DNA of 64,000 bases from Caenorhabditis remanei (taxonomy: Eukaryota; Nematoda; Chromadorea; Rhabditida; Rhabditidae): assembly GCF_010183535.1 (NCBI RefSeq), contig NC_071331.1, forward strand, positions 2,170,001-2,234,000, read 5' to 3'. A program made the translations under genes and the position numbers. Within the stretch, counting starts at the first letter, position 1, and the number at the start of each line of letters is the position of its first letter. This document shows, in pieces, positions 5,579-48,603 of this stretch. The notes beneath the pieces were generated by a model that was not told the DNA's origin, searched no databases, and worked only from the letters and a program-made list of their open reading frames with translations.

Positions 5579-5645
5579 GGAAAAAAATTAAAGAAGATAT
5601 TGCAGGAAATTTGATTCATTTCTAAATAAAAGTTGTTTGAAACAG
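5579..5645 (-). ncRNA. predicted 21U-RNA (piRNA) locus with upstream motif
   Basis: CTGTTTCA core on the minus strand at 5645-5638; predicted 5' U at 5599 (context CAAT), 39 nt past the core. Confidence 0.55.
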
Positions 5646-5751
5646 TAAAAATTCGGGAAGTGATAATTATAATATCTTCACTTATCTGTATCTCTATGAT
5701 TCAAACTAAATTTTTTTTTCTTCTTCATTGTTTCATTATTTCAATTTTATG

Positions 5752-5818
5752 CCAATATGATGACGAACCAAAATGTTGCTAAATTTGAACATATGCTAAT
5801 GAAATGATTCTGAAACAG
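5752..5818 (-). ncRNA. predicted 21U-RNA locus
   Basis: Minus-strand CTGTTTCA at 5818-5811; predicted 5' U at 5772 (CATT), 39 nt past the core. Confidence 0.55.
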
Positions 5819-6781
5819 TAGTTTTGCACTTTCATCGACATGATTTAATGCTTTGAATCTGGAGAAAATGATGACTTGAGAGAAAGAGGAATTATATAAC
5901 GTATGATCACTCAAATAATTTTGCATAGAAAATTCAGCTTCCGGAATGAAGTTAAATTTTGTTTTCACTTGTCAGTTGTAAAAACTGTTGATTCTGATTA
6001 TTTCAACTTGCATTCGGGCATTGACAAGTATGATTCTAGGTGAAACACTGAAACGATTTCAGAAACTGTTAATCAATTTGGCAGAAATGCTTTATGATTC
6101 GGGTTGGAGCGTTGCGAGAACTAATCTCTTTTCAGATAATCTTACCAAGTAGGAGTAATGAAATTGTGTTCGTTGGAAGATTGATCGAAAATCCAAGGCC
6201 AACTTGAAAATTCCTTCATGTACTTTTTTCCTGAAATCATTTTCATTTGCAGCACTTGAAAATGTGAAAACGTGTTTCTCAATTATGTGAAATCTAACTT
6301 GGAAAGAACAACTGCACTAAGTACTTAGTACTTGACAATATTTCTCCAGGTGTACAGCAAAAGATCCAAGATCTGCTCTTTGTAGAATAAGGAGACTATA
6401 TGGACCAGCCGGCTTTGGTGCATTAGCCATCTGGAACTCTGTCGAAGCAGCCGGTACCAACAACGGATTAACAACTGACACTTTGAGAAGCTAAATATAG
6501 TAAGTGATTCAAACAGGAATACGCTGTCAAAGCTAACAGAGTTGTTATAATTGTAAGAAACCGGAAACAGCAAAAGAAATTGACTAAGCGGAAAACTTTA
6601 GTTTTGATGAAAGTATTGAAATTGAAAATTTCCGGTTTCTCAGAAATTGTTTTAGTTTATAGAAATTTGTGGTTGTGTATATGTATTATTTCCAATAAAG
6701 GATTCCTCATATCAAAATCTAACAGGTCTCGTTAATTGCGGTGATCACTATCTATTTTATTACCGTTTAGTACCAATTATA

Positions 6782-8050
6782 TCAGGCTGGTGCATAAGTT
6801 TCTTTCTTTTTTTGGATCATTTTTGTCATGAAATTTCTAGAAGGCTAATAACTCACATAATGATAAATATAGTTATTTAGTAGCTATAACTTATTGTGAT
6901 TATACCTGTGACATGACGTCTGCCATCTGCTGAATCTCAGCCGTAGACAAGTCAAAATACATGAGGAACCCTTTTTTGGTACCATTCTTCGTCTTCATTT
7001 TTTTCTCAGAAAATGTTGACGAGAATGGGTGATCTATTCAAAATTAAAACAAGCTAAAAAAATTATGTTAAAAAAATTAATAATGACATTTGAACTAAGC
7101 AACTGTAGTTTAGTGCCGGTCGCTGAAGAACGGCGAGGATCAGCAATTTACGAATGTTTGAGTTTTTTCGATTTTTCTTTAACGCTAGATAATGAAATTG
7201 GTAGAAATGTTTATTTTTGAATAGAGTAGGCATTGACGTTTCTGAATTTATTTTGTTTCAGATGATTAAGCAATTTGCTTTTTTTCACAGAAAGCACGAA
7301 TTCAACATCATCAAAGTCACGTGATTTTTAAGTTTGATGAAGCCTGCTACTCGTGCTTCTGAATCAATCCACTAGATCTTTTGCACATTTTTAGAGCAAT
7401 GTATCTACTGTTGATTACTTGTAAGGAGATAGTTCTGACTTGCTTGAAAGCGTTGATAAGAGACCTAGACTTCACCCAGGTCTACTACACATAACGTTTT
7501 TAAAGCACAAAAATCATAGCAAACACGCGACCCACGTTTTATCACTTAATTAAATGGTTTTCTTATTATTTTTTTCTGGAATCACTTACTCATGTTGCCT
7601 TCTAACTTTTACACATAGTTTGGCATAAATGCTCTCTCAGATGTTTATATAATATGCTTGAACGTAGCTGAACAATGATTTCTAGTTGCTGTCAATCGTC
7701 TGATCATAATTTTTTCGCCTTTAACGTTCTGACCGAAAACTAAAATGTGACAACAAGGTAAAGTATTTTTCTATAACTTTCATTTAGTTTCCCATTAAGA
7801 TCGTCAAATTTTGATACCAATGTCGGCTAGAACCAAAAAACTTTCCAAAATAGGCGTTTGGTTGACCACAGAAAAAACCATAGTTTTAACGAGCGGAATG
7901 TCTAGGCACCAATTTAAAACTGTATTTGTTAGCCACTGAGAAGGTCATTAGAATGCAAAAAAGTTTGGGTCGATAAACAATCACAGTATCTAGAAACCGT
8001 GAGTCAAAATTCAACCTCAAAAAAAGAAAGAAACTTATGCACCAGCCTAA
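6782..8050. mobile_element. mariner-type TIR element, copy 1 (non-autonomous)
   Basis: The 1269-bp element has inverted termini of about 34 bp beginning TYAGGCTGGTGCATAAG, flanked by TA at 6780-6781 and 8051-8052. Termini with GGTTGGTGC-like cores are typical of mariner elements. The interior has only a 63-codon plus-strand frame (7029-7220) and no recognisable DDE transposase. It is the same length as copy 2 at 10227 and reads the same wherever I compared. Unit B, near 3430, is an uninterrupted relative of the insertion site. Confidence 0.85.
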
Positions 8051-8736
8051 TAACTCGAAGAGTTTATGTGACGACATTAGTGCGTCCCTTACATCGAAAA
8101 CAGAATATTCTACCGAATACATGAAAACAGCTGCACTAATCTCTTTCATTGTTTCATCTGGTCCTGGAGACTGGGTGAATGAGACGTCTGGTATTCCAGG
8201 TGTATACCAGAAGGTCCATCATCTGCTCTTCGTAGAATAAGGAGGCTCTGTGGACCAGCTGGCTTTTGCGTGTCTGGTGCAATAGCCAGCTGGAACTCAG
8301 TAAGGCCATTCGGTACAGGCAGATGACGATGAGTGAGAAAGTTAGAAAATTTTGAATTGGTTGTGAATGAAATTATTATAAAAAATAACAGTTTGGTAAG
8401 AAAGTCGAAAAAAAACAGTCTTGATTTTTATAATTTTGGTATAAAATAGCAATCAAAAAACTGGAGAATTAATTATAGGAAATAAATAAAACCGGTCATA
8501 GGATTGCTGAAACTGTCAAGAAATTCTAGAAAAGTTTCAAATTTTAGTTCTCCGTACAAACTATTTTGAATTGAATTGATTTATTGAGATGAAGGGCCAA
8601 AAGCCACTAACACAATCACAGTAGAGAACAAACAAAAGCGATAAGGAAATTAGATTAGTAGGTAGACATGTTAAGAGTGAGATAATTAGAGAAGTCAAGA
8701 AGTAAAAAGTACTCAAAGCAGATCCAAAATGAAAGG

Positions 8737-8744
8737 CTGTTTCA
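8737..8744 (+). promoter_or_regulatory. CTGTTTCA core without a good start at +37 to +41
   Basis: Exact octamer in the unit C repeat; no YRNT at the expected distance, so a weak candidate. Confidence 0.25.
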
Positions 8745-9466
8745 CCATGACCATTTTCTGCTTGACAATTTTTAGAAAAGCTCCGTTTCGAGTCCTCACA
8801 TTAAGTAATAGATTCATTCAATCAGTTCAATCAGGTCGAACGTCTTCATTTTCTGAATTATGGATCCAAAATTTGAATTTGTCCAAAACTTTCAGATTTC
8901 TGATAGAAAGCCGGCTAAGCTTTGAGAAAGATATTTTTGTTCTCTATTTGAAGCTTTTAGGGAAAAATAACCAGTTGCATAGTCGACGACTTCTTTATAT
9001 GAAAGTTCCTAAACACGATAATTATTTTTAAAGTTGCAAGCATTGTTGCTAGTTCAGATAGTTTTACAGTTTCTTATTTTTGTTATATCGAATTTCACAG
9101 TGTCTACAAAGTTTTCTCTCCACCATTCGAATTTTCCAAACTTCCAATTCGCTATTGCCCTCATCATTTCTTCCCTTTCCGCTCGTCTGTTCAGAATTTC
9201 TGGAGTGCTTCTTCTTTTTCTTTTTCTTCAACTACATCATCTGCCTTTAGGCTAGCTTCTGCTCTCAGAGCCATATGTGGCAAGCAGCTGGAGAGAGAAG
9301 AACGACGAATCGAGAATCTAATTGCAACGAGGAACGGAAGAAGAAGGGGAAAATGCGGGAAAATGATGAGAAGAAAGGGAAAATAAGGAGGATGGTAATG
9401 ATGAGTGTGAAATGTATTGGATGGGGTCTTCAGCAAGGCAGCGATAAAAATAGTAAATGTTATATA

Positions 9467-9817
9467 CCAGTCGGTTAACGCAGCCTAAGGGCTGCTCAAC
9501 CTCCTTTTCTACACCACCCGTGTTGAAAATTTGAAGAAATGAATTTGAAGAATGAAAAAGTTCTATAATTATTTTCCACGTGAACTACTATTTCCCTATT
9601 TCGGAACCGAAAGCCACTGAATGGCTTGAAACCCAAGTTTTTTCACCTAGTGGCCTAGTCGAGGCCTGTTCTAACTAAAAAAATAGACGGGCATCAAGTG
9701 GTGAAAATTTCTGATCCTTTGGTCCAACTTTGAAGAAAATCGGTTCAGTAGGAAGGGCGGTAGGATCGGCCACAGACAGACAAACATACACCCGTTTGCG
9801 TTTGTTAATAGTAAAAA
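9467..9817 (-). mobile_element. short non-autonomous Helitron
   Basis: Read on the minus strand, the element starts near 9817 with TTTTTACTATTAAC (family start TCTTTACTAAT, so the first C is mutated). It ends at 9467 with a GCAGCCCTTAGGCTGC hairpin followed by CTGG, with host T next to the end. The host A/T junction without a target duplication and the hairpin plus CTRR end are Helitron hallmarks. Both ends match the 2.2-kb copy at 51124-53348. 351 bp, no protein-coding content. Confidence 0.65.
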
Positions 9818-9841
9818 TAGAAGAAAGTATTATCGGAATGC

Positions 9842-9849
9842 TGAAACAG
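9842..9849 (-). promoter_or_regulatory. CTGTTTCA core (minus strand), weak 21U candidate
   Basis: Exact octamer; nearest YRNT lies at +35, inside the small Helitron end. Divergent from the site at 9937. Confidence 0.3.
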
Positions 9850-9936
9850 ACTAAAGTGTCGAAAGTCGAGCTATAACCAAATTTTCGACTATTACATAGC
9901 AAGTGAGGGAAGACACTTTTTGAAAAAAAAAGTACA

Positions 9937-10002
9937 CTGTTTCAGATTTAGAATATTAAACTTTTCGCTTGCTTGGTATGTTTCTTCTCGCCGCAATGTT
10001 CA
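9937..10002 (+). ncRNA. predicted 21U-RNA locus
   Basis: CTGTTTCA at 9937-9944; predicted 5' U at 9982 (TGTT), +38. Confidence 0.5.
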
Positions 10003-10226
10003 AACCACAATCTAGAACAATTAAAATAATTTATTTTCAAGAAAAACTAAAAGCTTACAGATAGAATGAACAATTGTTTAATAAATGCGTATAAATCAAA
10101 CCGTCAGCTTCATTTTTGTAGTTGACAACTTTTTTATACGAGCACTCTGAAAATGACTCTTTATCTGAGTTTAAAAAATTTCTTATAATTCTCTAAGGGG
10201 TAAACCAAGCAAAAAATGGTCAACTA

Positions 10227-11495
10227 TCAGGCTGGTGCATAAGTTTCTTTCTTTTTTTGGATCATTTTTGTCATGAAATTTCTAGAAGGCTAATAACTCA
10301 CATAATGATAAATATAGTTATTTAGTAGCTATAACTTATTGTGATTATACCTGTGACATGACGTCTGCCATCTGCTGAATCTCAGCCGTAGACAAGTCAA
10401 AATACATGAGGAACCCTTTTTTGGTACCATTCTTCGTCTTCATTTTTTTCTCAGAAAATGTTGACGAGAATGGGTGATCTATTCAAAATTAAAACAAGCT
10501 AAAAAAATTATGTTAAAAAAATTAATAATGACATTTGAACTAAGCAACTGTAGTTTAGTGCCGGTCGCTGAAGAACGGCGAGGATCAGCAATTTACGAAT
10601 GTTTGAGTTTTTTCGATTTTTCTTTAACGCTAGATAATGAAATTGGTAGAAATGTTTATTTTTGAATAGAGTAGGCATTGACGTTTCTGAATTTATTTTG
10701 TTTCAGATGATTAAGCAATTTGCTTTTTTTCACAGAAAGCACGAATTCAACATCATCAAAGTCACGTGATTTTTAAGTTTGATGAAGCCTGCTACTCGTG
10801 CTTCTGAATCAATCCACTAGATCTTTTGCACATTTTTAGAGCAATGTATCTACTGTTGATTACTTGTAAGGAGATAGTTCTGACTTGCTTGAAAGCGTTG
10901 ATAAGAGACCTAGACTTCACCCAGGTCTACTACACATAACGTTTTTAAAGCACAAAAATCATAGCAAACACGCGACCCACGTTTTATCACTTAATTAAAT
11001 GGTTTTCTTATTATTTTTTTCTGGAATCACTTACTCATGTTGCCTTCTAACTTTTACACATAGTTTGGCATAAATGCTCTCTCAGATGTTTATATAATAT
11101 GCTTGAACGTAGCTGAACAATGATTTCTAGTTGCTGTCAATCGTCTGATCATAATTTTTTCGCCTTTAACGTTCTGACCGAAAACTAAAATGTGACAACA
11201 AGGTAAAGTATTTTTCTATAACTTTCATTTAGTTTCCCATTAAGATCGTCAAATTTTGATACCAATGTCGGCTAGAACCAAAAAACTTTCCAAAATAGGC
11301 GTTTGGTTGACCACAGAAAAAACCATAGTTTTAACGAGCGGAATGTCTAGGCACCAATTTAAAACTGTATTTGTTAGCCACTGAGAAGGTCATTAGAATG
11401 CAAAAAAGTTTGGGTCGATAAACAATCACAGTATCTAGAAACCGTGAGTCAAAATTCAACCTCAAAAAAAGAAAGAAACTTATGCACCAGCCTAA
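10227..11495. mobile_element. mariner-type TIR element, copy 2 (non-autonomous)
   Basis: 1269 bp, with the same termini and interior as copy 1 at 6782, flanked by TA at 10225-10226 and 11496-11497, in the same orientation 3445 bp away. The near-identity implies recent transposition or gene conversion. No transposase gene inside. Confidence 0.85.
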
Positions 11496-11768
11496 TACAA
11501 AAATGAAGCTCTATCTTGGTGTATCCGAACATTTTTAAAATTATGAGACCATCTTATGGCGAACATCTCAAAATAAATCGGGCTTGTTAAAATTATGAAA
11601 AAAATTTCTGTAACAGTGTGCTGAGAAAACAAATTACTCATACCTATACAACTGATAGAACATTGATACAATCCTGTACGAAGTATATTTTTGGTTTCAC
11701 TTATTCGAATTGGTAATTTAAAATTTTGCTGCACCATTCTTACTGACGAAAACATTTCTCGTAGAGTC

Positions 11769-11835
11769 CTGTTTCAAAATCTAGACATCTTCTTTTTCTC
11801 ATTTACCTGGGCATTGAGCGTGTGCTGTAATCTCC
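11769..11835 (+). ncRNA. predicted 21U-RNA locus
   Basis: CTGTTTCA at 11769-11776; predicted 5' U at 11815 (CATT), +39. Tandem partner of the locus at 12144. Confidence 0.55.
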
Positions 11836-12143
11836 TTTATTTCAGATCTCTCATCTGCTCTGCTAGTTATCCAACAAAATCCACACCACCTGCAATAATC
11901 CATTTCCACATGTCTCCCCCTTTTACCTGTTTTCATAAATTTGTCTTCATGTCTAATCGTGGGTTCATGGTATGATTCCCGAATTGTATTAATCTTGTAA
12001 AGTTTACAGTTGCAATGAGATTTGAAAAAATAACAGACACTGAAAAAACTGATATGAGTTGTTTTCGGTTTCACTTATCCTTTTCAATTATTTGAAACTA
12101 TTCTGCACCAGTCGAAATGTTTGAAGATATTTGTCACAGTGCC

Positions 12144-12212
12144 CTGTTTCAAAATCTAGATATCTTCCATGTCTCTTTCTCTTATGAGTAGTACAGCTCT
12201 TCCCCAACAAAA
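12144..12212 (+). ncRNA. predicted 21U-RNA locus
   Basis: CTGTTTCA at 12144-12151; predicted 5' U at 12192 (TAGT), +41. Confidence 0.5.
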
Positions 12213-12217
12213 TCCAC

Positions 12218-12418
12218 CACCTGCAATAATCCCTCACCTGTTCTCATAATTTAGTCGTCCCACCACCCCTCATCTACCTGTTTTTTTACTCTAAATGTAA
12301 GAACTATCAGGTGTGACGGGGGCCCAAGTGTTTTTCCAATCTCCATCCCAATCACCTGTGCCCCACCTGGAATCCTAAAAATAAAGCCACACCAGGTGTC
12401 AATTCATACACACACCTG
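12218..12418. promoter_or_regulatory. cluster of CACCTG/CAGGTG E-boxes
   Basis: Seven exact sites at 12218, 12235, 12308, 12353, 12364, 12393 and 12413, with an eighth at 11887 in the tandem copy. Composition predicts far fewer than one in 200 bp. CACCTG is bound by bHLH heterodimers and by Snail/ZEB zinc-finger repressors. The cluster lies 1.8 kb beyond the 3' end of the bHLH gene at 14264-14711; a regulatory role is inference. Confidence 0.45.
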
Positions 12419-12430
12419 CGACTTTAACTG

Positions 12431-13970
12431 AAAATATTTGAATAGACTAACTGAAGCCAAGTTTTTCAAAGACTTTGTTTACTGAATTGCCGCCAAATCA
12501 ATTTTCTCTTGAATATGATCGATATGAAACGGCAAAAACTGGAAAATACCTTAGTGAAACGCATTTTGAGTTTAAAATCAAGTAAACATGTTTTTCTGAT
12601 GGCGAATGATGACTTTTGTGAAATTAGAGATGCTTAACGATGTTCGCTCGAAAAGGGCAATACATATGTAATCGTTACCAGAATCAGAGTCACGTTCGAA
12701 TTAATTAAACATATCCAACCGTTTCTACAGATTGCTAGAAACATGAATAATTATAAAAATCGATGCTGAAAAGTACCCATCAGAATTCAGTGTCACTATT
12801 TCTGGCAGTTAGTAAAATAAGTCTAATTTAATTTCAGTCAATTAGAACATTTTAAAATATCAAGATTCGGTTAAAAATTTCTTCTGTTTTCAATTCAATA
12901 TAAAAAGTGCAATTAATTAAGAAAACCAATCACATTATTCGAAGGATTGAACAGATGAATTTAAATTGGCTACTAATTAAAAACTAAAAACGCAATTTTT
13001 GAGCATAAAACCAAACTGTCATGTTTTTTATCAGATAAGGTGAATCTGGTTTTCGTAAAAATTCGAGAGAGCAAATCGGACGGTATGACAAATCAGGGTA
13101 TTAAACAAACCTGAAACCTATACATAGTTGTTGCAACCGAAAATTCTTTTTCAAATTTTTAAAAAACGATCACGAATAAACGAATAAATTAGACATTTCC
13201 TACTGTTTTTACAAATTGTTAGAAACTTGAAAAAAATATGAAATTCGATGCTGAAAAATACCCGTTAAAACTTTGGAAAACGGTTTCTGGTAGTGAAGAC
13301 TAACCAGTTTAAACATTGATATATTTCTAGGACTAGTTTTCAGACGTTTTTCAATTTTTCTGAAAAATGAAACGGCCCCAATTCTGTTTATTAGAAAAAC
13401 CAATCATATTAAAACTTATCTCAAGTTTTTGAAGCAGAAATTTTTATTTTTCTTTGTTTTCCTACTGGATTACCACAGGAATTGGATCTGTAGAACATTC
13501 TTCACTGATTCTGAGGTAACAATGCTTTCATAGTCACCAAAAAGTTTTGAAGTACCATCTACTCTATTTGACGGCGTATGGAGTAACATTTGCTTGAAGA
13601 ATGCAGCTAAATGTGAATTTAATTACCATTGCGTAAAAATGAAAAACTTGGAATGTCAATTTCTCACTTTTCTTACTGTTCCTTATGATTAGTAAATTAC
13701 TTTCCAAATTTTAGTTAATCTGATCACATTCTGCTTAGTAAACGAAATTACGTAACTTAGAGTGACATACTGTCTCTCTTGCATCATAAACCTTGTTTGA
13801 ACGATATTTGATACCTATGGTAGGGAAAAGGTCAATTCCTATACTCCCAGATTTATTGAGTATTTGGGCAGACACCTGTGGAGAGATAGACAATGGGGGA
13901 CTGGATTAGGAGGACAATAGACACAAATTTTTTTATTGTTTCATTAAAAAGTCACTATCCAGTTCAAATC
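12431..13970. other. AT-rich intergenic stretch
   Basis: No gene, element ends or 21U core found. Only short chance frames; one more CACCTG at 13871. Confidence 0.6.
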
Positions 13971-14263
13971 TAAAAGTGTCTGTTGGTGTGTACAGGTGTC
14001 CAGATGTCATGATAGACATCTCAGCTAAATTCTGTACACGTCTGTTTTCAATAAGCGAAAAATTTTTAACAGCTGTTCTCCCTCAAGCCTATCCATATGT
14101 TAGCTTGCACCTGTTCCAGATGTCCGCACAATCTGTCTGTTGTGACGTCAGGGTGTCCACATGTCCAAATTACATGGGGATACTTATCTTATAAGGATCG
14201 ATTTATTTACAAAAGTAATTACCCGGAATGATTTGCCATCAAAAAAGTTAAACCGTGTGAGAA

Positions 14264-14711
14264 TTAAACAGATGACGTCGGCGAGGATTCTGGAGACGAG
14301 GCGGGGGTGTCGGGTCGCGACGTGGACGGGCTGACAGATGCGGAGCTGGTGAAGAAGTGCTCGAATCCGGCGGGCAGCGAGTTTTCTTTTCCGGATAGCT
14401 GGGCTTGGAGCTCTCGGATATGGGCGATGGTGGCCAAGACGAGCTCATATTGGTCGGCGTCTTCCTCGGCGGCTACTAGTTGCCGAAGACGGTTGGTGAC
14501 CTGGAATATAAAAAAAGGTGAAGAAAATTTTTTCTATTTCAAAAAAAAGTGAAATTTTTTACTGTTTCAAATTTTTAATTTATTTCAAAATCACAAAAAA
14601 TACCTTCTCCTTTTCCCTTCTCTCTGCCGTCGTGAATTTCAGGATCTTTCTGGATTTTGGGGAGACGTGACTGATGACTTCGCATGGTGGTCGGGCAGTG
14701 GAATTCTTCAT
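14264..14711 (-). CDS. small bHLH-type transcription factor, two exons
   Basis: Exon 1 is 14711-14604 and exon 2 is 14500-14264, joined in phase 0 across a 103-nt intron (donor GTATTT, acceptor TATTCCAG), giving 114 residues. Residues about 26-66 read as a basic helix-loop-helix: a basic stretch with AERREKEK, helix 1 VTNRLRQLVAAEE, then helix 2 DQYELVLATIAHIRELQAQL. The tail is rich in Ser, Pro and Thr (SPSTSRPDTPASSPESSPTSS), as in many transcription factors. The start is the only ATG before the basic region; GC content is clearly higher than in the surroundings, as expected for selected coding sequence. E-box-binding nuclear regulation is inferred from the fold. I cannot tell which nematode hlh gene is orthologous. 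A CTGTTTCA octamer lies in the intron on the other strand. Confidence 0.75.
14563..14570 (+). promoter_or_regulatory. CTGTTTCA core in the bHLH intron
   Basis: Exact octamer, antisense to the gene, with no YRNT at +37 to +41; probably not a functional locus. Confidence 0.2.
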
Positions 14712-14855
14712 TATAGCAAGCAGAGAATAGCGATACAGATGTCTGAATGGAGTGAGAATGAGGGTCCGTTAGGCGGAAAAGAGGGGGGTGGAGCCTTGGG
14801 CACGCAGCTGCCAAGGCCACGCCCCCTTAGGGTGTTTATGCACAGGTGCGCAAAT

Positions 14856-14861
14856 AAAAAA
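14856..14861 (-). terminator. Pol III oligo-T terminator of the tRNA gene
   Basis: A run of six Ts on the minus strand starts 5 nt after the tRNA 3' end. Confidence 0.7.
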
Positions 14862-14865
14862 TGGG

Positions 14866-14938: not shown

Positions 14939-15087
14939 GCATGTAAGAAAGTGGTCGACAGGGTGTGGAAGAGCACGGTAAAAAAGGGGGAGACTTGGGA
15001 GAGAAAAAAGAAAAGAGTGGGTAGGTTCCGGGTGGATCCAAGCCGCCACTGACTCACTAGTCGGAAGTATTAGGGTTTTTAAGTTTT

Positions 15088-35177: not shown

Positions 35178-35179
35178 TC

Positions 35180-39530: not shown

Positions 39531-39531
39531 A

Positions 39532-39668
39532 TTAGCAAGTCACAGTTCTTACAACCGCGCTCTACCGAAACCGAAAAAAAAGTGTGCGAAATAGAGAGAC
39601 TCAGAGAAAAAGAGACATTTTCAAGGGAATTTCGGTGGAGCGCAGTTGTAAGAACTGTGGCGAGCTAA
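39532..39668. mobile_element. 137-bp palindromic MITE
   Basis: Ends TTAGC...CACAGTTCTTACAAC and inverse; TA at 39530-39531 and 39669-39670. The duplicated segment near 43137 reads CAGACTAGGTCT, exactly the pre-insertion site, so the TA duplication is demonstrated. Confidence 0.88.
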
Positions 39669-39728
39669 TAGGTCTGGTAACATTCAAAATGAGCCCCCAC
39701 CCTAATTCAAATACAGCCCCCCATGTTG

Positions 39729-39736
39729 TATATAAG
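39729..39736 (+). promoter_or_regulatory. TATA-box-like TATATAAG
   Basis: Lies about 40 bp before the C-rich tandem repeats and 300 bp before the small ORF at 40029; could be the promoter of the element remnant there. Confidence 0.35.
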
Positions 39737-39770
39737 TACAACCTCCACCTCCATCCAACACTCATCAACT

Positions 39771-39874
39771 TGTTTTTCAAGTTGCGCCCCCCACCGTGTT
39801 TTTCAAGTTGCGCCCCCCACCGTGTTTTTCAAGTTGCGCCCCCCACCGTGTTTTTCAAGTTGCGCCCCCCACCG
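39771..39874. repeat. four perfect 26-bp tandem repeats
   Basis: Unit TGTTTTTCAAGTTGCGCCCC+CCACCG, four copies without visible change. C-rich arrays of this kind also form the arms of the Merlin-like element at 49158. Confidence 0.85.
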
Positions 39875-40028
39875 GTCGTCATAGTTTCGAATGAAAACAT
39901 GTTCGACGACTGGTTGTTTTTTAATTTTTCAAGCTTGTTTTGTTGATTTTTTTCTATAATTTTTATTCTTTTCATTTAAAATTAATTCCAGAAGGTAAAC
40001 TTCGAGAGATTTAAAAACGAAATTTGCA

Positions 40029-40151
40029 ATGGCTTCCATACTCGACATGAAATCCGTAACGGACGTGATTACCCAATGTCCCGATGAACGGTCAGTAATC
40101 CGTATGTTGATGAATGAAGGGTTAATCAGAAACTCGGCGCTAACCCCATAA
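40029..40151 (+). pseudogene. 40-residue ORF, possible transposase N-terminus
   Basis: ATG at 40029, stop at 40149-40151, following an AATTCCAG acceptor-like site near 39990. It reads MASILDMKSVTDVITQCPDE then RSVIRMLMNEGLIRNSALTP. The layout (small helical N-terminal domain after C-rich tandem repeats) would suit the start of an ISXO2/Merlin-type transposase, cut off by the LINE just downstream. This is inference from style, not a clear homology. Confidence 0.3.
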
Positions 40152-40153
40152 TA

Positions 40154-41263
40154 TTGAATTGGTGGGGGGTTAATATTCCTTCTCTAGACGTTGTTTCTCT
40201 AGACGTTGTCTTCTTTGACTTTAAGAAAGCATTTGATAAGGTGGATCACATAATTTTGATCAATAAACTTGCAAACTTTGGTCTGTCAAACCTTTACATC
40301 TCCTGGTTTGAAGCTTTCCTCAAAGAACGCACCTTCTCAGTAATGGTTAACGGATCCCGAGACAATAAAATTTCTCCTATTCCCTCGGGTGTTCCGCAAG
40401 GAACTGTATCAGGTCCCCTATTATTCTTAATCTACATAAACGACCTACTCCTGAAACTCCCATCAAACATTCATTTTGCCGCTTTTGCTGATGATATCAA
40501 ATTGTATTCCCATGACCCAGTTCTCCTCCAACACGGTATAAACCTAGTATCCAAATGGGCCTCCGCCAACGCTTTGCCGTTAGCTCACACTAAAACCTCT
40601 CTTCTTAGGCTAGGTCCCGAAAACTCTCGTCACCCATTTCATGTAGACTCCATCCCCATCTCCGAATCTACAGTAGTACGGGATTTGGGTCTATTAACCG
40701 ACTCTAATCTCAAATTCGACCTTCACATTTCCAAATTATCCTCGCTAGCTTTACTCCGCTGTAATCAACTGCTGAAAGCCTTCAAGTCTAGATCTCTATC
40801 ACTCTACAGACATCTTTTCAACACCTATGTTCTTCCCTTGCTTGAATATTGCTCTGTTGTTTACTCTCCTTCACCTTCTAGCGTTCTGTCTCAAAAACTG
40901 GAAAAACCACTCAGATTATTCACTAGAAAAGTTCTACAACGATGCAACATCCCTTATTCTTCATATCTCGACCGTCTCGAAATTCTCGACATTTACTCAG
41001 TCCGCCATCGCAGACTTAAATCTCAATTAATCTTACTTTATAAATTTATATGCGGCGCAGCGTACTTACCAAATATCCAGTCGTATGTCAGACTGTCCAA
41101 TTCGGCTAGACGACCCATGACTTTAATTTGTGTTAGGCCTGATATTAAGGATTTTTTCTCTAATTCAATCCCCCTATGGAATTCTGTCACATGTAATACC
41201 CATAAGTTCCTTTCTCCCGGTGAATTTGTCTCCCTTCTCAATCATTCAATTAATAGACTATGA
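40154..41263 (+). pseudogene. 5'-truncated non-LTR retrotransposon reverse transcriptase
   Basis: An open frame of 369 codons covers the RT palm and C-terminus: FFDFKKAFDKVDH, SGVPQGTVSGPLLFLIYINDL, catalytic FADDIKLY (residues about 110-117), then the CR1/jockey-type tail through LFNTYVLPLLEYCSVVYSP and IPLWNSV. The endonuclease and N-terminal RT are missing, so the copy is dead on arrival, as is typical of LINE insertions. The first ATG is not a natural start; a 15-bp duplication (TCTCTAGACGTTGTY) marks the 5' junction. The frame itself has no stops. Confidence 0.85.
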
Positions 41264-41514
41264 TCTCCCCCTGTGAATTCGCTCTTTACCTTGCCCCCTC
41301 TCCCCTTCTCGCTTATTTCATTCATATCTTCTCTCCTCATATCAATTGATTCTCGTTCCCCCATTTTTTTCCCCCATACTTCTTGACTTAATTATCTTGC
41401 TTTCCACGTATTTCCCCTCCTACCAGGTCTTTAGCCTCGTGAGGGGCATGATCCGGTCTCCTGTATATTTTAATGATTTATATCCCAGTCAATAAATTAA
41501 AAAAAAAAAAAAAA
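40165..41514 (+). mobile_element. truncated LINE (CR1/jockey-like) with poly(A) tail
   Basis: RT coding end, pyrimidine-rich 3' UTR from 41264, AATAAA-like ending and A16 tail at 41499-41514. Inserted after the small ORF at 40029. Confidence 0.75.
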
Positions 41515-41583
41515 TAATTCACCACCCAATTCAAAATCCTCAAAATTCTCAAAACCAACTTATTTCTCCCTCCTAGACCTGTG

Positions 41584-41796
41584 AACATGTTAAATGCACA
41601 TTTTATACATATTCTCTCCTCTTTTTTCGATTCGAAAAATCTGCAACTAGTTTTGTTCGTGCGAAAGTGTCATATGGTCAACATACGTGCTGAATAAGAA
41701 TACCCCATGTGTTTTTGGAATGACAACAGACACACGGATAGACGGAATAGAAGAGGACTCGCTTTTACATATGTACTGTGGCAGATGCGTTAGCAC
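41584..41796. repeat. highly conserved repeat block, copy 3 of 6
   Basis: Isolated copy directly after the LINE; same core as 20763-20974, without the rest of the duplicated unit. Confidence 0.7.
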
Positions 41797-42426
41797 GTGG
41801 ACTTGAGAGGAAAGAAGTGATTTAGAATTGTGAAATTTTGGAATGAACGGATGAAAAGAAAATTCGAGTAAGACAAACTGTAGTTATTTTACCAATTCAT
41901 CAGAAACTATTTTCATTAATTCCTGAAAAAAAACAATTCCAATGAATAAGTCTAAGATATATGTTTTTAAAATTTTTGCAAATCCAAATAATCATCAATT
42001 GATTTTCCTCATGAGTTTTTTTAGAAACTTTTCTTTCATTGAAAAGTTTAGTATTGTTGCTAAATTATGATACATTAAAATATAAATCGATAGTAAGAAG
42101 GTGGCTTCTTATTTTTCTGTTTAAAGTAAGAATTTCTTGAATATAAAGCATTCGCGTACTTTGAAAGAGAATATTATTGTTAATCAAAGACTTTCAGTCT
42201 CAAAAACCACACAGAGAAACAGCAATCTTTATTTCTGACAGACACTTTCCTGATACCGCTTGAGCAGTTTTTAAAAAAAAATTGCTCAATAACTACAGGT
42301 TCTTTTTGAACAATCACTAAAAAAAATCATCAATTCAGTCGAATTTTTGCAGAAAATGCCTCAAAAACCACTTTTTCAAAAATTACTGCTGAAAAAAACA
42401 TGTTTTTCGAAAAAAAAAATTCGCTT

Positions 42427-42509
42427 CACCCGGACCGAGCCGGGCCGACCGGGTTGACCTGGCCGGGCCGGTGAAAATTTGGAAATCGGCCCGGCCCGTG
42501 ACAAGTGAT
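42427..42509. mobile_element. GC-rich hAT-type MITE, degenerate copy
   Basis: CGGGCCGACCGGG...CGGCCCGGCCCGTGACAAGT; the right end matches the 48720 copy. Confidence 0.5.
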
Positions 42510-42579
42510 AGAATAGTTTCCATAATTCTATTTTTCTGTAACGAAAGAATAATCGTGGAAGACAAAATGCTAAATTGTT

Positions 42580-43137
42580 TTATAGAAATAGTGTATCTCA
42601 GGAAAAATTTATGGAGAGCGATTAGATGTGCTGCTATGCTAGAAGTAATTGGAATCAAAAACTACTCGAGAATAGTGTATCTGAAATATTGTTTTTCTGT
42701 TTCACTCGTCTCATAGGAGAACGAAGGTCCTTTTTAAACTTTTTAACTTCAGTCAAGCAATACCTGTCCTAGATACTTCTGAGAGTATGTTTTGTGAACA
42801 AACTGACAACATACCTGTGTGCGTCTGAACAGTTCTGAACCAGATGCTACGTTACTGTTACAATTTCGTATATTTGAAAATGCAGGATTGTTGAATCGAA
42901 ATAAGAAACTATTCGTGTTTCTGATTCTACAGGAAAAGGCTGAGACCATTGATACGTCTTAAACTAGCAAAATGTTTCGTTTCAAAAGATTGATTATTTT
43001 AATCATGGTTTTGGATCTAATTTATTGTCAACTTGTTTTAGAGAACTATTGTGACCCAACAAGAATAAGTCAAATTGGACAATTACTTTTAAAAATATAT
43101 AAAGGTAGACGAAATATAGTTATTTTCTTATCAGACT
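42580..43137. repeat. segmental duplication paired with 38970-39530
   Basis: Carries the uninterrupted TA site for the MITE at 39532 and an altered 21U locus (core 42697-42704). Confidence 0.75.
42697..42704 (+). promoter_or_regulatory. CTGTTTCA core, paralogue of 39016
   Basis: Core retained but a small insertion downstream moves the CAGT start to about +50; possibly inactivated. Confidence 0.3.
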
Positions 43138-43519
43138 AGGTCTTATGAGAATAACAATCCGATTAAAAACTAAATCGTCCACTAGGTTTCACCTAAATGC
43201 TGTTTCCGAAACACCAAAAGTTTGCCCGCTCAGTATCAGCGAATGCTGGGTTGATTGATTTTTAAAGCAGCAAAAATTCTAAATGAGCAAGATTCAGCAA
43301 CGATTGGAAACTTCACAAAGTAGCTTTGTGTGTCTAGTTAAAAGTGCTCCGAGTTGGAACATTTAAATTTTTTTTTAATTAGTGTTAGTCACATAATATT
43401 GCTTCACGTGGTGCTGTTACGTTGTTATTCCCCACAGAATAATAAGACTTTTCAAAAAACGAAATATTTCAAAATTTTCTGAAACCGTGAAAAAACTCGA
43501 ATTCCGAACTCCTAAATCA

Positions 43520-43586
43520 CTGTTTCATCTTCAGCACTTCAGTTTCGAGATTTTTTTTAGTTCGTTCTCAGCGAAACTTATGATTT
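43520..43586 (+). ncRNA. predicted 21U-RNA locus
   Basis: CTGTTTCA at 43520-43527; predicted 5' U at 43566 (CGTT), +39. Confidence 0.55.
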
Positions 43587-43599
43587 GAAAAAAAATAAA

Positions 43600-44550
43600 G
43601 TTCCGAGAAAAATTTCGCGGGCTGAAACGCAAGCGTGGCAGAGGATAGTGGGCGGATATTAAACTGCAATCATAAAATTCCACCTGATTTTTCAACGAGC
43701 AACGTTGAATTTTGAAATGAAATCGTATTTAAATCGTTGTTTTCAACGTTTTTTGCCGAATATTTTCACATTTTTCATTTTTAATCATCGGGTATTGACT
43801 GAAACTGAAGTCGCGTGAATTAGACCTTGGCTGGTGTTTATTATATACTAAAAATCTCCGAAACGGTTGAAATTTACTTTAATATGACTACAAGCCTGAA
43901 AAAACGTTGAAAGTTCCATCATGAGCTGATGAGTTGTTAACATGATATCTAAGATAAATTTTTGTTAAAAAATATGTATATCAAACAAGAATTATTCCTG
44001 CTGCGATATTTCACGAATGGTTTTTAGCCAGAAATTACATGTGATACTCTATCAAGATTGCTTTAACTGATGATGATAGTATCACCAAGCTGCTATCGAT
44101 ACACTAATCACAACAGAAATAATTCATATATTTTTGAAACCTGGAAAACGGATGTTTTCAAAAACTTGTAGGAACTGGATATTCTAAGAGGTCTTGAATG
44201 AATTGTTCTATCCCTATTAATACTGTGCAATCAACAACAAAAAATAATTGGTAAAAAAAAAGTGTAAACCTGTTTCTTGCAAATGCTGACAAAAAGAGTA
44301 AGGGTGGAAAAAACTGAAAATCTCTGTTGGTATCTTTACTACTTTAAAAATCAATCCTTCTAAATCATTAGTTACATCTGAAATTCATCACTGTTGTTTA
44401 AAATTTGTTAGGTTTTATGAGTTTTAATCTATAGTGAACAAGCATAAGCAACACAAACCACTGTAGATTCTCACTAAAATTCCGTTTCTGAAACATTCAA
44501 AATCAGTTAATCTGTTTGATGATGGTAGTGATTAGACCCAGGCACTCCCA
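43600..44550. other. AT-rich intergenic stretch
   Basis: No gene or element recognised; a GC-rich CGCGGGCTGAAACGC scrap near 43616 recalls MITE termini seen elsewhere. Confidence 0.45.
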
Positions 44551-45178
44551 CTGACGAGTTTTATGACACCCAACAAAAAAAATGAATCCTCAGTTTCAAA
44601 GAACCGTCAAGACATTGTTGAATAATTCTGAGTCAATAATGTTTTTTCGTCATCGAGTTTTAAATTGTTGTTGTTAGTGCTAATCAGTACTGTTTCTGAT
44701 CTTCATCAACAAAGTACAATTCGTCTCAATCATATTGAACTCCCCAGTAATTCAAAATTCTTCTTCCCACCCAGACAGATGTATCATTTCTTTCCCTAAA
44801 GAACTCTTATCCTGATGATGAATAAGAAGTTGAGCCCCCGTCTCCTTCCCGAACAGCTGCCCATTTTCATTTCTGTGAGCCAGTTGGCTCACAGCTTGCG
44901 CAAGTGAAAAAGGAACGACGGACCAGTTAAAAACTGTTTCTAGTTGGGTGGAAATGAGAAAAAAACGTTATCACAGTCATCTCTGGAAAAATATGAACCA
45001 TAAAGTTTTTTACAAGACCACGAAAGCAAATCGCGTTAAAATTCAGCGTAAACCTAATTTATCATTCTGAAACCTTAAAAAACGTGTTTTTTTGTCGAAC
45101 CTTTGAATATATCAGGTCCCTACGATCAAAGTTAAAATTCCTCAATTTTTACATTATTCAACTCTGAAACTGAAGTTA

Positions 45179-45245
45179 TGGTTGTGAATAAAGAGTCCAC
45201 TAATTGAAATTTTTTCGATACGTACATGGCACACTTTTGAAACAG
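45179..45245 (-). ncRNA. predicted 21U-RNA locus
   Basis: Minus-strand CTGTTTCA at 45245-45238; predicted 5' U at 45199 (TAGT), +39. Confidence 0.55.
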
Positions 45246-45814
45246 CGGAAATAAACTTGTTCTTCTTATTTTGCAAAAGATTCGCAATTTTCTTGAGGTG
45301 CTTTTACCTGTGTTACAATTTTGAATTCGATATGGAAAATTGGATCAGAGGCACCCAGAAGTTTTGAATTTGTATTAGCTGCTGATGCAATAATCAGATT
45401 ATTAATTTTGTCCATCACTTACTAATGAAGTAGTTGTGAAACTGTCAGAATCAGTTCCTACTGGAAATTTTGGAATTTCTACACTCGAATCCTAGAAGTA
45501 CAGAAACCCCACTAATATTTTTAAGGCGTATCTATTTCATTCATTCAAAAAAATTAAAGAATATATGCCCTTCAATCTGAATTCATTGCCCTAAACTGGT
45601 TTGAAAAAGTTTGCAACAGAGGAAATTTCGTGAAACTTCCGATAGAGTAAAGCATTTCACTGTTTTAATGAGGACTAGTTTTTATTTTCAAGTGTTTTTT
45701 TTTCTGATTGAGAGAAACAATACAACTGCCTCGTAGATCAGTGAAATCTGGATTATACCTTCCGCCAGTCGTTCAGAGAAATTCATTTTCAAAATCTATC
45801 TTTACTTGCAAACA

Positions 45815-45879
45815 CTGTTTCAACACTTTTTCAAAAACTCGCTTTTACGTCAATGCGATGTTTACTTATACCCACCAAA
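45815..45879 (+). ncRNA. predicted 21U-RNA locus
   Basis: CTGTTTCA at 45815-45822; predicted 5' U at 45859 (CGAT), +37; paralogue of 20646 with the same spacing. Confidence 0.5.
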
Positions 45880-45929
45880 TAGAATACAAATTTTCCAAAA
45901 CCAACATTTTTCTCCTTCCTAGACCTGTG

Positions 45930-46992
45930 AACATGTTGAATGCACATGTTATACATATTCTCTCCCCTTTTTCAATTCGAAAAATCTGCAACTAGTTTTG
46001 TTCGTTCGAAAGTGTCATATGGGCAACATACGTGCTGAATAAGAATACCCCATGTGTTTTTGGAATGACAACAGACACACGGATGGACGGAATAGAAGAG
46101 GACTCGCTTTTACATATGTACTGTGGCAGATGCGTTAACACATGGATTTGAGAGGAAAGAAGTGATTTAGAATTGTGAAATTTTGGAATGGACGGATGAA
46201 AAAAATGAAAAAATTGAGAGGTTTCTTTAAACGAACTAAAAGAAAAATGTAGATCTGAAAACAAGATCGTTTCTTCATAGAGTAGGACAAACTGTAGTTA
46301 TTTTTCAAATTTTTCAGAAATCGTGCTTTGTGAAAAATACTGTTTCTTGAAGTTTATTTCTCGAAACAAAACATTTTTCAATAATATTCTCTCCTCTTTT
46401 TTCAATTCGAAAAATCTGCAACTAGTTGTGAAAGTGTCATATGGTCAACATACGTGCTGAATAAGAATACCCAATGTGTTTTTGGAATGACAACAGACAC
46501 ACGGATGGACGGAATAGAAGAGGACTCGCTTTTACATATGTACTGTGGCAGATGCGTTAACACATGGACTAGAGGGGAAAGAAGCGATTTTGAATTTGGA
46601 AAATTTGGAATGAATGGATGAAAAAAATGAAAAAATTGAGAGGTTTCTTTAAACGAACTAAAAGAAAAATGTAGATCTGAAAACAAGATCGTTTCTTTAT
46701 AGAGTAGGACAAACTGTAGTTATTTTTCAAATTTTTCAGAAATCGTGCTTTGTGAAAAATACTGTTTCTTGAAGTTTATTTCTCGAAACAAAACATTTTT
46801 CAATAATATTCTCTCCTCTTTTTTCAATTCGAAAAATCTGCAACTAGTTTTGTTCGTTCGAAAGTGTCATATGGTCAACATACGTGCTGAATAAGAATAC
46901 CCCATGTGTTTTTGGAATGACAACAGACACACGGATGGACGGAATAGAAGAGGACTCGCTTTTACATATATACTGTGGCAGATGCGTTAGCA
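45930..46992. repeat. three tandem copies (4-6 of 6) of the conserved block, period about 420 bp
   Basis: Copies at 45930-46141, 46387-46563 and 46811-46992, separated by matching spacers (GTAGATCTGAAAACAAGATC near 46249 and 46671). Identity between the last two periods is very high. Confidence 0.8.
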
Positions 46993-47092
46993 TATGTACT
47001 TGGGAGGGTAAAATATGCGATTTTTAAAGAAACAGAGATAAAGTATTAAAGAAGAACGTTTTTTGATAGAGGGACAACTGTAGTTATTTTTG

Positions 47093-48110
47093 CAATTCAT
47101 CAGAAACTATTTTCATCAAATTCTGAAAAAAAAAACTGTTTCTTGAAGTTAAATTCCTGAAACACAACAATTTCAATTAATATGTCTAAGATATATATAT
47201 AAAAGTGTTGCAAATTCAAATAATCATTGAACGATTTCTCCCATGTATTTTTTTTGCTTTCCTGTTTTATTTCAAAGTAAAAACCACTGGTTCAAAATAT
47301 TGTTGCTGGACAAATTAAAAAGATGACACATTCCAAGTATAAACTGATTGTAAAAAGGTTTTTTCTTATTTTTCTTTTCAAAACAGCCATTTCTTGAATG
47401 CAAATCATCAGACGGAATCTTAATGATGTAATTCAAGTCTCAGAAACAGCAATACTTTTTTCCGATTTTAGGCAGACCTTTCTTAAAACCACTTGAGCAG
47501 TTTCTCACGGTAATTTCGAGTATTTTTTACAGTTAAATGACTGTTTCTCAAGAATTTCACCAAATTATGTTTCATAAAAGTGTAAAAAGTTAAGTTTTCA
47601 GAAAAATTAATTAAAAAAATGTAAACTTTCCATCAATCAAACTATTTTTTATCACTGTGAAAAGGAAACGGTATCAAAGCAAAATCCCATCCAGGCACAG
47701 GTTTGTTTTCATCCCATATAATCCTATTAGCCCATATGTTATTGTCAGAAAAAAAGTGATCTAATAATAAAACAATTCTGAAACTGCTGAAAAACAACAC
47801 CGTTGCTCCAGTCCTACTTTTTGACTGGAATTTTGTGTGTTTGTTTTTTTGTGCTATTTTATAAACTCCATTGCAAAAAAGAATGCATGCAATAAAATCG
47901 TCTTGATTGCTCTTGTAATAAGTACAACAAATGAAACTTCTGAAAAATTTATGTTACCAACTATTAATATAAGTTTCGATCAAAAGCATTAAATCAATTA
48001 TCGTCTCAAGTCATACAGAAGTTAAAAATTTTCTGATCTAGTATTGCACAATTTTATCATCTCATTACAACAATAACATCCCTTAACGCTGCAAGTGTCT
48101 TTTTTGCATG
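47093..48110. other. AT-rich intergenic stretch
   Basis: No gene. The part from about 47930 resembles 21200-21450 (shared GCAAGTGTCTTTT-like word and following text). Confidence 0.45.
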
Positions 48111-48135
48111 AATTGGGAAATTGATGGGAGCAAAA

Positions 48136-48603
48136 TTAAGCAAGTGAAAAAGCACCAAGAACTATGTTATTGAAAAATTCCTGTTCCAGAAAGTTAAAAT
48201 TTCTTTCTCCAACATTACATTGTCCATGGAAACGAGCAATCTTTGAAAATATATCTGCGTGAAAACAGCGACTTAATTTGAACAACGAACAAATGAATCT
48301 GTTCAGAAAATCATATCTATTGAAGACCCGTTGAATGTCTGCAACCCACATGATCACCTGGTCTACCATCTATGTAAGCGGGGACAAATAATTCTGTTTC
48401 ACAAACTTTTGTACAACTTCATCAATGTCCAGAAGTTGTATGGTCATATCTTTTTTCGGCAAAAGCAAATGTTTCCGCCATGTGAAGCTTATTACATATC
48501 TTGAACTTTTCTTGTAGAGTTGATCAAAATTGTATAAAACATTTTTGAAAGTGACTAAAAGAGATTTTCTGAAGTTTTTAGTAAATACCATGATTTTATT
48601 CAC
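48136..48603 (-). pseudogene. gene-like frame with one in-frame stop
   Basis: One continuous minus-strand frame of about 155 codons, broken only by TAG at 48370-48372 and directly followed by ATG. Its residue usage (NFRKSLLVTFKNVLYNFDQL, IARFHGQCNVGERNFNFLEQ) looks more protein-like than neighbouring frames. No family recognised; could be a decayed exon or an unusually long chance frame. Confidence 0.25.
48394..48401 (+). promoter_or_regulatory. CTGTTTCA core, weak 21U candidate
   Basis: Exact octamer, nearest YRNT at +43. Confidence 0.3.

What the first reader, a model, noticed from the sequence alone, without database searches (positions are those of the whole stretch)
5579..48401. Window is a type I 21U-RNA (piRNA) cluster defined by CTGTTTCA motifs
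By eye I count 44 exact CTGTTTCA octamers (27 plus, 17 minus); base composition (about 35% GC by estimate) predicts 2-3. Of 41 outside transposon coding or leader sequence, 30 have a YRNT whose T falls 37-41 nt past the core. Fifteen are at exactly +39, where about 3 would be expected. CTGTTTCA upstream of YRNT is the established promoter grammar of C. elegans 21U-RNAs. The gene-poor, AT-rich setting and both-strand arrangement also match. The octamers in the gypsy leader (53924) and pol (58051) lack the spacing and act as internal controls.
Basis: partly seen in the sequence, partly recalled or inferred. Interest (0 to 1): 0.92.

Follow-up and report, generated by a model that had tools for sequence, protein, structure and literature searches.

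The report
Worm piRNA gene cluster, fast-diverging piRNAs
This stretch of a roundworm chromosome looks like a dense field of tiny genes for piRNAs, the germline's guide RNAs against foreign DNA; many sit in local duplications, and the copies differ more in the guide RNA itself than in the DNA around it.

Summary
A YRNT whose T lies 38-40 nt past the core follows 30 of 45 window sites and 108 of 141 distinct neighbouring sites, but 12 of 60 chromosome I octamers (chance about 21%). The cluster is wider than the window (193 octamers in 264 kb) and the motif is degenerate (matrix trained on flanks: 122 window sites against 3 in the mirror image). This is the known kind: type I 21U-RNA loci. No reads were available, so transcription is inferred. 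New here: 125 of 193 octamers lie in locally duplicated DNA. In 161 promoter-anchored paralogue alignments core and 5' T are conserved (T changed in 4 of 142), while nucleotides 2-21 differ 1.47 times more than adjacent DNA (577/2762 against 903/6374; 0 of 2000 re-anchored nulls reach this), the excess fading at about nucleotide 21-22. A group-level Wilcoxon is only P 0.083. The footprint fits the predicted mature RNA and suggests, without proving, diversifying selection on duplicated piRNAs.

The parts
1..64000 (.). segment of a type I piRNA (21U-RNA) domain, chromosome IV 2,170,001-2,234,000; it continues on both sides
   Evidence: 45 exact cores; 122 matrix-plus-spacing sites of 12 bits or more (60 plus, 62 minus; per 8 kb 17,17,13,23,22,19,5,6) against 3 in the mirrored window
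29374..30382 (+). duplicated module carrying five exact cores (29508-, 29711-, 29894-, 29942+, 30093+)
   Evidence: 31 matched stretches in the genome (itself included), all on chromosome IV 1.978-2.472 Mb, all same strand
45102..46303 (+). diverged copies of the module (77% to 29374-30382, 83% to 20213-21129)
20213..21129 (+). copy of the module (78% and 83%)
14300..15400 (+). duplicated segment with cores 14562+ and 15146-
   Evidence: nearly full-length copies at chromosome IV 2.164 Mb (85%) and 2.453 Mb (82%); partial copies near 1.973 and 2.246 Mb
4924..4990 (-). predicted 21U locus: core 4983, T at 4944 (+39)
5579..5645 (-). predicted 21U locus: core 5638, T at 5599 (+39)
5752..5818 (-). 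predicted 21U locus: core 5811, T at 5772 (+39)
9937..10002 (+). predicted 21U locus: T at 9982 (+38)
11769..11835 (+). predicted 21U locus: T at 11815 (+39)
15088..15153 (-). predicted 21U locus: core 15146, T at 15108 (+38)
16529..16595 (+). predicted 21U locus: T at 16575 (+39); not among the 111 strict loci (matrix score too low)
19342..19408 (+). predicted 21U locus: T at 19388 (+39)
20392..20458 (-). predicted 21U locus: core 20451, T at 20412 (+39)
20646..20713 (+). predicted 21U locus: T at 20693 (+40)
25509..25575 (-). predicted 21U locus: core 25568, T at 25529 (+39)
27317..27383 (-). predicted 21U locus: core 27376, T at 27337 (+39)
27670..27737 (+). predicted 21U locus: T at 27717 (+40)
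28746..28812 (+). predicted 21U locus: T at 28792 (+39)
29652..29718 (-). predicted 21U locus: core 29711, T at 29672 (+39)
29834..29901 (-). predicted 21U locus: core 29894, T at 29854 (+40)
32095..32160 (+). predicted 21U locus: T at 32140 (+38)
34123..34188 (+). predicted 21U locus: T at 34168 (+38)
34636..34701 (-). predicted 21U locus: core 34694, T at 34656 (+38)
34770..34836 (-). predicted 21U locus: core 34829, T at 34790 (+39)
34908..34974 (-). predicted 21U locus: core 34967, T at 34928 (+39)
36568..36633 (+). predicted 21U locus: T at 36613 (+38)
38508..38574 (+). predicted 21U locus: T at 38554 (+39)
38714..38779 (+). predicted 21U locus: T at 38759 (+38)
38836..38902 (+). predicted 21U locus: T at 38882 (+39)
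39016..39083 (+). predicted 21U locus: T at 39063 (+40)
43520..43586 (+). predicted 21U locus: T at 43566 (+39)
45179..45245 (-). predicted 21U locus: core 45238, T at 45199 (+39)
45815..45882 (+). predicted 21U locus: T at 45862 (+40)
63260..63327 (+). predicted 21U locus: T at 63307 (+40)
50737..61593 (+). LTR retrotransposon inside the domain; poor in predicted piRNA loci (2 strict loci in 53300-61700, 14.6 expected by length)

Best explanation
The window is part of a large type I piRNA (21U-RNA) domain on C. remanei chromosome IV. Each locus is its own tiny gene: a degenerate Ruby-type promoter (core NNGTTTCA with A/T-rich flanks), a spacer, and a YRNT initiator whose T, 38-40 nt past the core, becomes the 5' U of a 21-nt RNA. 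By analogy with C. elegans, a complex of SNPC-4, PRDE-1 and TOFU-4/5 would drive Pol II to make a roughly 26-28 nt capped precursor, which is trimmed and loaded into the PIWI protein PRG-1. Shown here: motif excess, spacing, concentration on chromosome IV in the listed places, conservation of core and 5' T between paralogues, raised divergence over the predicted mature RNA, and a PIWI-clade exon in the genome. Inferred: transcription, processing, PRG-1 loading and silencing; and that new loci arise largely by local same-strand duplication of multi-promoter segments, after which promoters tend to be kept and mature RNAs diverge.
For: Counts and spacing against chromosome I controls. Genome-wide 19,000 against 6,781 mirrored. 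ATTACTGTTTCAAA 158 against 1 mirrored, 96 of the 100 listed places on chromosome IV. Flank-trained matrix with spacing term: 122 against 3 mirrored at 12 bits; 601 against 12 in 264 kb when a spaced YRNT is required. Core variants show the same spacing. Exact core kept in 34 of 64 paralogue pairs, 22.2 expected, P 0.001. GTTTC mismatch 46/689, 5' T 4/142, nucleotides 2-21 577/2762, adjacent DNA 903/6374. PIWI-clade exon at C1:627,672-628,363. Species from exact chromosome lengths.
Against: No small-RNA, chromatin or capped-RNA data. 15 of 45 window octamers lack a YRNT at +38..40 and may be background, use another T, or be dead. YRNT retention between paralogues was not significantly above control offsets (40/49 against 21/32, P 0.12). 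Sampled chromosome IV is uneven: 0,0,6,3,2,0,2,1 octamers in eight 5-kb samples.
Confidence: 0.94

Rival explanations
1. The octamers are a by-product of repeats: one or a few duplicated sequences or a transposon carry CTGTTTCA, and the spacing is inherited, not functional.
For: 125 of 193 octamers lie in 60-97% identical repeats of 120 bp or more.
Against: Collapsing similar window sites still leaves 17 of 39 at +39. Core and 5' T change less than flanks between copies while nucleotides 2-21 change more. The module at 29374-30382 was found only in 0.5 Mb of chromosome IV, on one strand.
Confidence: 0.03
2. The motif serves something else: snRNA-type promoter elements, or sites of another factor (forkhead binding is reported at 21U promoters).
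For: The piRNA motif is reported to derive from snRNA promoter elements (abstract and passages of PMC6436959); forkhead binding is mentioned in passages of PMC3597512.
Against: Rfam at gathering thresholds finds no snRNA in the window, only one tRNA. A factor site alone does not explain the YRNT at a fixed distance or the divergence footprint.
Confidence: 0.02
3. The domain is mostly degenerate: old promoters with few active loci.
For: 15 of 45 exact cores lack YRNT at +38..40; many paralogues have altered cores.
Against: Core, GTTTC and 5' T look constrained between copies, and the acceleration is stronger where GTTTC is kept in both (113 pairs, 1.60) than where not (48 pairs, 1.30).
Confidence: 0.08
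4. The faster divergence of nucleotides 2-21 is mutational (transcription-associated damage or pausing), not selective.
For: The loci are presumably transcribed in the germline; substitutions in the body have a lower transition fraction (0.40 against 0.50); the 3' edge is only known to a nucleotide or two (position 21, that is nucleotide 22, is still at 0.21).
Against: Positions 22-27 are not raised (0.11-0.16) although the precursor is reported as about 26-28 nt, and positions -3..-1 are not raised either.
Confidence: 0.35

Closest known systems
C. elegans type I 21U-RNA clusters, chromosome IV (passages of PMC3597512 and PMC6436959; Ruby et al. 2006 recalled)
   Same: CTGTTTCA core about 40 nt upstream of the 5' T, A/T-rich spacer, chromosome IV, individual promoters, core variants with 5' C or A.
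   Different: Different species; local duplication of multi-promoter segments is prominent here. I did not test whether C. elegans clusters show the same.
C. briggsae piRNA clusters (section 5 and passages of PMC9683057)
   Same: Ruby motif, YR dinucleotide at -3/-2 of the T, a left-end chromosome IV cluster (0.02-7.1 Mb), both strands.
   Different: C. briggsae loci were shown by PRG-1 immunoprecipitation; here prediction only. That paper says individual piRNAs may not be subject to positive selection; the paralogue footprint here hints otherwise.
C. remanei 21U-RNAs sequenced before (cited in passages of the review PMC6468775; the original, recalled as Shi et al. 2013, was not held)
   Same: C. 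[quoted passage not shown] elegans or C. briggsae.
   Different: I could not check whether loci of this window were listed there.
Pristionchus-type dispersed piRNAs (abstract and passages of PMC6436959)
   Same: The upstream motif is described as common to nematode piRNAs.
   Different: Those lie in introns of active genes and are dispersed; this domain is dense and on chromosome IV.

Membership tests
type I 21U-RNA loci | Ruby core motif in excess | tested here: met
   45 against 6.9 expected; variants too
type I 21U-RNA loci | YRNT with T about 40 nt downstream of the core | tested here: met
   30/45 window, 108/141 flanks, 12/60 chromosome I
type I 21U-RNA loci | A/T-rich elements around the core and in the spacer | tested here: met
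   base profile of the 264-kb sites
type I 21U-RNA loci | 21-nt RNAs with 5' U at the predicted T | not testable with these tools
   no reads; indirect: conserved T and raised divergence over nucleotides 2 to about 21
type I 21U-RNA loci | dependence on PRG-1 and PRDE-1/SNPC-4/TOFU | not testable with these tools
   a PIWI-clade Argonaute exon exists in the genome (Piwi-like protein 1 at 121.6 bits, Argonaute-2 at 60); the promoter factors were not searched for
Caenorhabditis-type clustered piRNA domain | concentration on chromosome IV, both strands | tested here: met
   96 of 100 listed places of an extended motif; the other 58 of 158 were not listed and could lie further along IV or on later contigs; 60 plus, 62 minus
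Caenorhabditis-type clustered piRNA domain | depletion on X | not tested
   the listings stop before contigs C5 and C6
Caenorhabditis-type clustered piRNA domain | H3K27me3 chromatin | not testable with these tools
   no chromatin data
snRNA genes | an snRNA downstream of the element | tested here: not met
   Rfam scan of the window at gathering thresholds: one tRNA only

The most novel reading that the evidence does not exclude
Nematode piRNA genes are born by local duplication of multi-promoter blocks and then diversify under positive selection acting on the mature 21-nt sequence: promoters and the 5' U are preserved while nucleotides 2 to about 21, and not the precursor's tail or the initiator, diverge about 1.5 times faster than the neighbouring DNA.
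Probability: 0.43. Interest if true: 0.78.

Novelty: new member of a known kind. Interest (0 to 1): 0.55.

Why it matters
Worm piRNAs are reported to be unconserved between species, and the C. briggsae study (PMC9683057, section 5 and passages read) concludes that the sequences are under little selective pressure and asks how new piRNA genes arise. Comparing paralogues inside one genome works at a scale where the sequences still align. It offers an origin (local duplication of promoter-bearing blocks) and a sequence-only readout of where the mature RNA lies, and it makes 'neutral drift or selected diversification?' directly testable with population data.

Tried and rejected
LTR element as target: predicted 21-mers of the 109 strict loci outside 53300-61700 match the element (window 53401-61600, either strand) no better than 21-mers taken 60 or 120 nt further on (best match of 5 mismatches in 4, 6 and 4 cases). 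No sign of targeting of this element.

The +13 YRNT peak was first a puzzle; the base profile shows it is the Y-A-x-T part of the A/T-rich promoter half. It is also seen in the flanks (29 of 141) and weakly on chromosome I (6 of 60 and 3 of 8).

Gene content: 20 open frames, chosen by hand from the list, were scanned against Pfam. 40118-41260 has a reverse transcriptase domain, 57821-58720 (a piece) RNase H domains, 54150-55349 (a piece) only a hit below cut-off, 16827-17858 none (and no PDB relative); the other 16 have no family at E 0.01. So 'gene-poor' is plausible but untested with gene models.

The first paralogue profile counted gaps as mismatches; leave gaps out and give the same dip. 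The Wilcoxon over 16 group means is not significant (P 0.083), whereas the per-pair test (2e-8) and the cluster bootstrap are. The held-out test is small (20 pairs; P 0.027 ignoring dependence; with the single best copy per place 8 pairs, 10/154 against 12/329).

No title or abstract start in those listings reports faster-than-flank divergence of mature nematode piRNAs or piRNA birth by block duplication; only open-licence PMC papers are searchable and most listed papers were not opened, so this is weak evidence of absence. Two Genome Research papers were not held. PMC6367137 was looked at in passages and added nothing used here.

The dispersed 80-base piece in 14300-15400 is now named as the tRNA gene.
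Full report
Where it is. The window is C4:2,170,001-2,234,000 of a 130,466,896-base assembly. C1 and C4 are 17,247,545 and 25,790,997 bases, exactly the lengths given for chromosomes I and IV of C. remanei PX506 in Table 1 of PMC10461856 (section 6 read). The same table puts the end of the left arm of IV at 8.6 Mb, so the window lies on the left arm.

Observation. There are 45 exact CTGTTTCA where an order-2 Markov model expects 6.9. The genome holds 19,000 against 6,781 for the word read backwards. Of the 45, 17 have a YRNT whose T is exactly 39 nt past the core (mean of offsets 4-119: 3.3). Taking +38..40, it is 30 of 45 in the window, 108 of 141 in the 200 kb around it (148 sites before identical contexts were removed), and 12 of 60 at chromosome I octamers fetched as controls; random positions give 0.208. 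Fisher P is 2e-6 (window against chromosome I) and 9e-14 (flanks against chromosome I). The 60 controls are all plus-strand places from 0.46 to 2.67 Mb of chromosome I. A further 8 chromosome I sites from L001-L008 gave 3; 20 extended-motif sites on chromosome IV (plus-strand places, fetched) gave 14; and 14 sites in eight 5-kb chromosome IV samples gave 8. In the 20 extended-motif sites +38 (7) and not +39 (3) was the commonest offset.

Extent. An extended motif, ATTACTGTTTCAAA, occurs 158 times (1 mirrored). Of the 100 places listed, 96 are on chromosome IV, 3 on C2, 1 on C3 and none on C1; the other 58 were not listed. Density is uneven: 0,0,6,3,2,0,2,1 octamers in eight 5-kb samples.

The motif is degenerate. 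Of the 24 one-base variants of the core (the best 14 were printed), several carry the spaced YRNT well above 0.208: ATGTTTCA 51/94, CTGTTTCT 45/82, CAGTTTCA 46/89, CGGTTTCA 31/48, CTGTTTTA 34/56 (264 kb). In the window alone the numbers are small and mixed (ATGTTTCA 6/14, TTGTTTCA 6/19, CAGTTTCA 12/16). PMC3597512 (passages) describes a C. elegans piRNA under CTGTTTCA as male-type and one under ATGTTTCA as female-type. A matrix trained on the flanks, with a term for the spaced YRNT, scores 122 window positions at 12 bits or more against 3 in the mirrored window and 6.0 on average in five Markov-1 sequences; strands are 60 and 62. Requiring a matrix score of 9 and YRNT at +38..40, 111 strict loci remain in the window (median spacing 298 bp) and 601 in 264 kb against 12 mirrored. 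Training and test regions share duplicated DNA, so they are not wholly independent.

Duplication. 125 of 193 octamers (29 of 45 in the window) lie in another 60-97% identical stretch of 120 bp or more within 264 kb. The module at 29374-30382 has 31 matched stretches in the genome (itself included), all on chromosome IV between 1.978 and 2.472 Mb and all on one strand. The segments 25200-28900 and 43000-49100 have nearly all their long matches in the same half megabase (1.976-2.490 Mb) on the same strand; matches elsewhere come mainly from short stretches that look like dispersed repeats (only 40 of 442 and 40 of 585 candidates were scored). In 14300-15400 the dispersed piece of about 80 bases is the tRNA-Val gene. 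In 34300-39500 (40 of 431 candidates scored) all but one of the reported matches outside the segment itself come from one dispersed 1-kb repeat, so that search could not show local copies. Same-strand local copies point to tandem duplication or unequal exchange rather than transposition (inference).

Paralogue footprint. From the 601 strict loci, 161 distinct pairs with a usable best paralogous alignment (200 bp or more, 65-95% identity) were obtained. Mismatch rates, gaps excluded and positions shared with another locus masked: free flank 1267/9194 (0.138), GTTTC 46/689 (0.067), spacer 382/2836 (0.135), 5' T 4/142 (0.028; the T rate in flanks is 0.119, P 0.0002), nucleotides 2-21 577/2762 (0.209), nucleotides 22-29 163/1107 (0.147). 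By position, counted from T = 0: 1-7 220/984, 8-14 185/965, 15-20 172/813, 21-27 143/960, 28-41 315/2149, -22..-9 275/2109, -3..-2 43/289. Single positions are noisy: position 21 (nucleotide 22) is also at 0.21 and positions 12 and 18 are at 0.12-0.13, so the 3' edge is known only to a nucleotide or two. Against adjacent DNA (-22..-1 and +21..+41) the ratio is 1.47; random re-anchoring in the same alignments gives 1.00 (sd 0.06, maximum 1.22) and 0 of 2000 reach it. It holds for queries inside (31 pairs, 1.49) and outside (130 pairs, 1.47) the window, in three identity strata (1.37, 1.60, 1.67) and for exact cores (43 pairs, 1.65). Standardised for base composition against free flank it is 1.51, cluster bootstrap 1.26-1.67, and all ten groups with at least 4 pairs are above 1 (1.11-1.81). 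In three copies fetched later from outside the 264 kb it is 52/388 against 75/818 (1.46; T unchanged in 20 of 20).

Against this: a Wilcoxon over the 16 group means is only P 0.083; the held-out set is small (P 0.027 without allowing for dependence); gaps are also more frequent in the body; leaving out bodies with more than 7 mismatches (11 of 124 pairs) shrinks the difference from downstream DNA from 0.058 to 0.037 (P 0.002), so part of the signal comes from strongly changed bodies; an early test of YRNT retention was not significant (40/49 against 21/32, P 0.12).

Reading. Constraint on the core and the 5' T, with divergence raised only over the nucleotides that would be in the mature RNA, is what a working 21U locus under selection for novelty would leave. 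A purely mutational cause tied to transcription should cover the reported 26-28-nt precursor, including the trimmed 3' tail, and positions 22-27 are not raised. Selection for novelty is favoured over mutation only modestly and is not proved; polymorphism data would decide.

Machinery. The genome search for Piwi domains gave 67 exon-level matches. Four stretches were put to solved structures: C1:627,672-628,363 (L124) is clearly PIWI-clade (Piwi-like protein 1 at 121.6 bits, Argonaute-2 at 60), L029 is AGO-like, L122 is divergent, and L121 failed. L030, L031, L123, L125 and L126 were fetched but not compared. PRDE-1, SNPC-4 and TOFU factors were not searched for.

Known or new. Type I 21U-RNA clusters are well known in C. 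elegans and C. briggsae, and C. remanei 21U-RNAs have been sequenced (review PMC6468775, passages). The cluster itself is a further member of a known kind. The duplication history and the divergence footprint did not appear in the listings of the ten searches or in the passages read; the library excludes most subscription papers, so this is no proof of novelty.

Noticed in passing
window 50737-61593: LTR retrotransposon with two identical 387-bp LTRs (50737-51123, 61207-61593), so a recent insertion into the piRNA domain; two long open frames; few piRNA loci inside.
   Followed up: partly
window 49157-49782 and 61700-62131: Inverted copies (about 95%) flank the LTR element, as if it landed within or beside an element with terminal inverted repeats; a 19-bp tandem repeat lies in both arms.
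   Followed up: no
window 6780-8052 and 10225-11497: 1273-bp direct repeat, 100% identical, 2.2 kb apart: recent duplication or long terminal repeats.
   Followed up: no
window 35378-36378: One-kilobase repeat found on all six large contigs, in many places as two abutting opposite arms (a large palindromic element); only one arm here.
   Followed up: no
window 23745-25260 and 15758-18571: Pairs of 99-100% identical inverted repeats, probably DNA transposons; the second encloses an open frame of 344 residues with no Pfam or PDB match.
   Followed up: partly
G000 C4, places: The A/T-flanked motif ATTACTGTTTCAAA is listed far more densely at 18.5-20.4 and from 23.1 Mb (75 of 96 places; the list stops at 23.59 Mb) than at 2.7-12.6 Mb (21), and not before 2.69 Mb. 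C. briggsae's right cluster is also reported to have strong A/T flanks (passages of PMC9683057), so promoter flavours may differ by cluster.
   Followed up: no
264 kb around the window: Substitutions in the mature piRNA body have a lower transition fraction (230/577) than in flanks (632/1267); unexplained.
   Followed up: no
window 14864-14938 (-): A tRNA-Val (AAC) gene lies in the duplicated segment 14300-15400.
   Followed up: no
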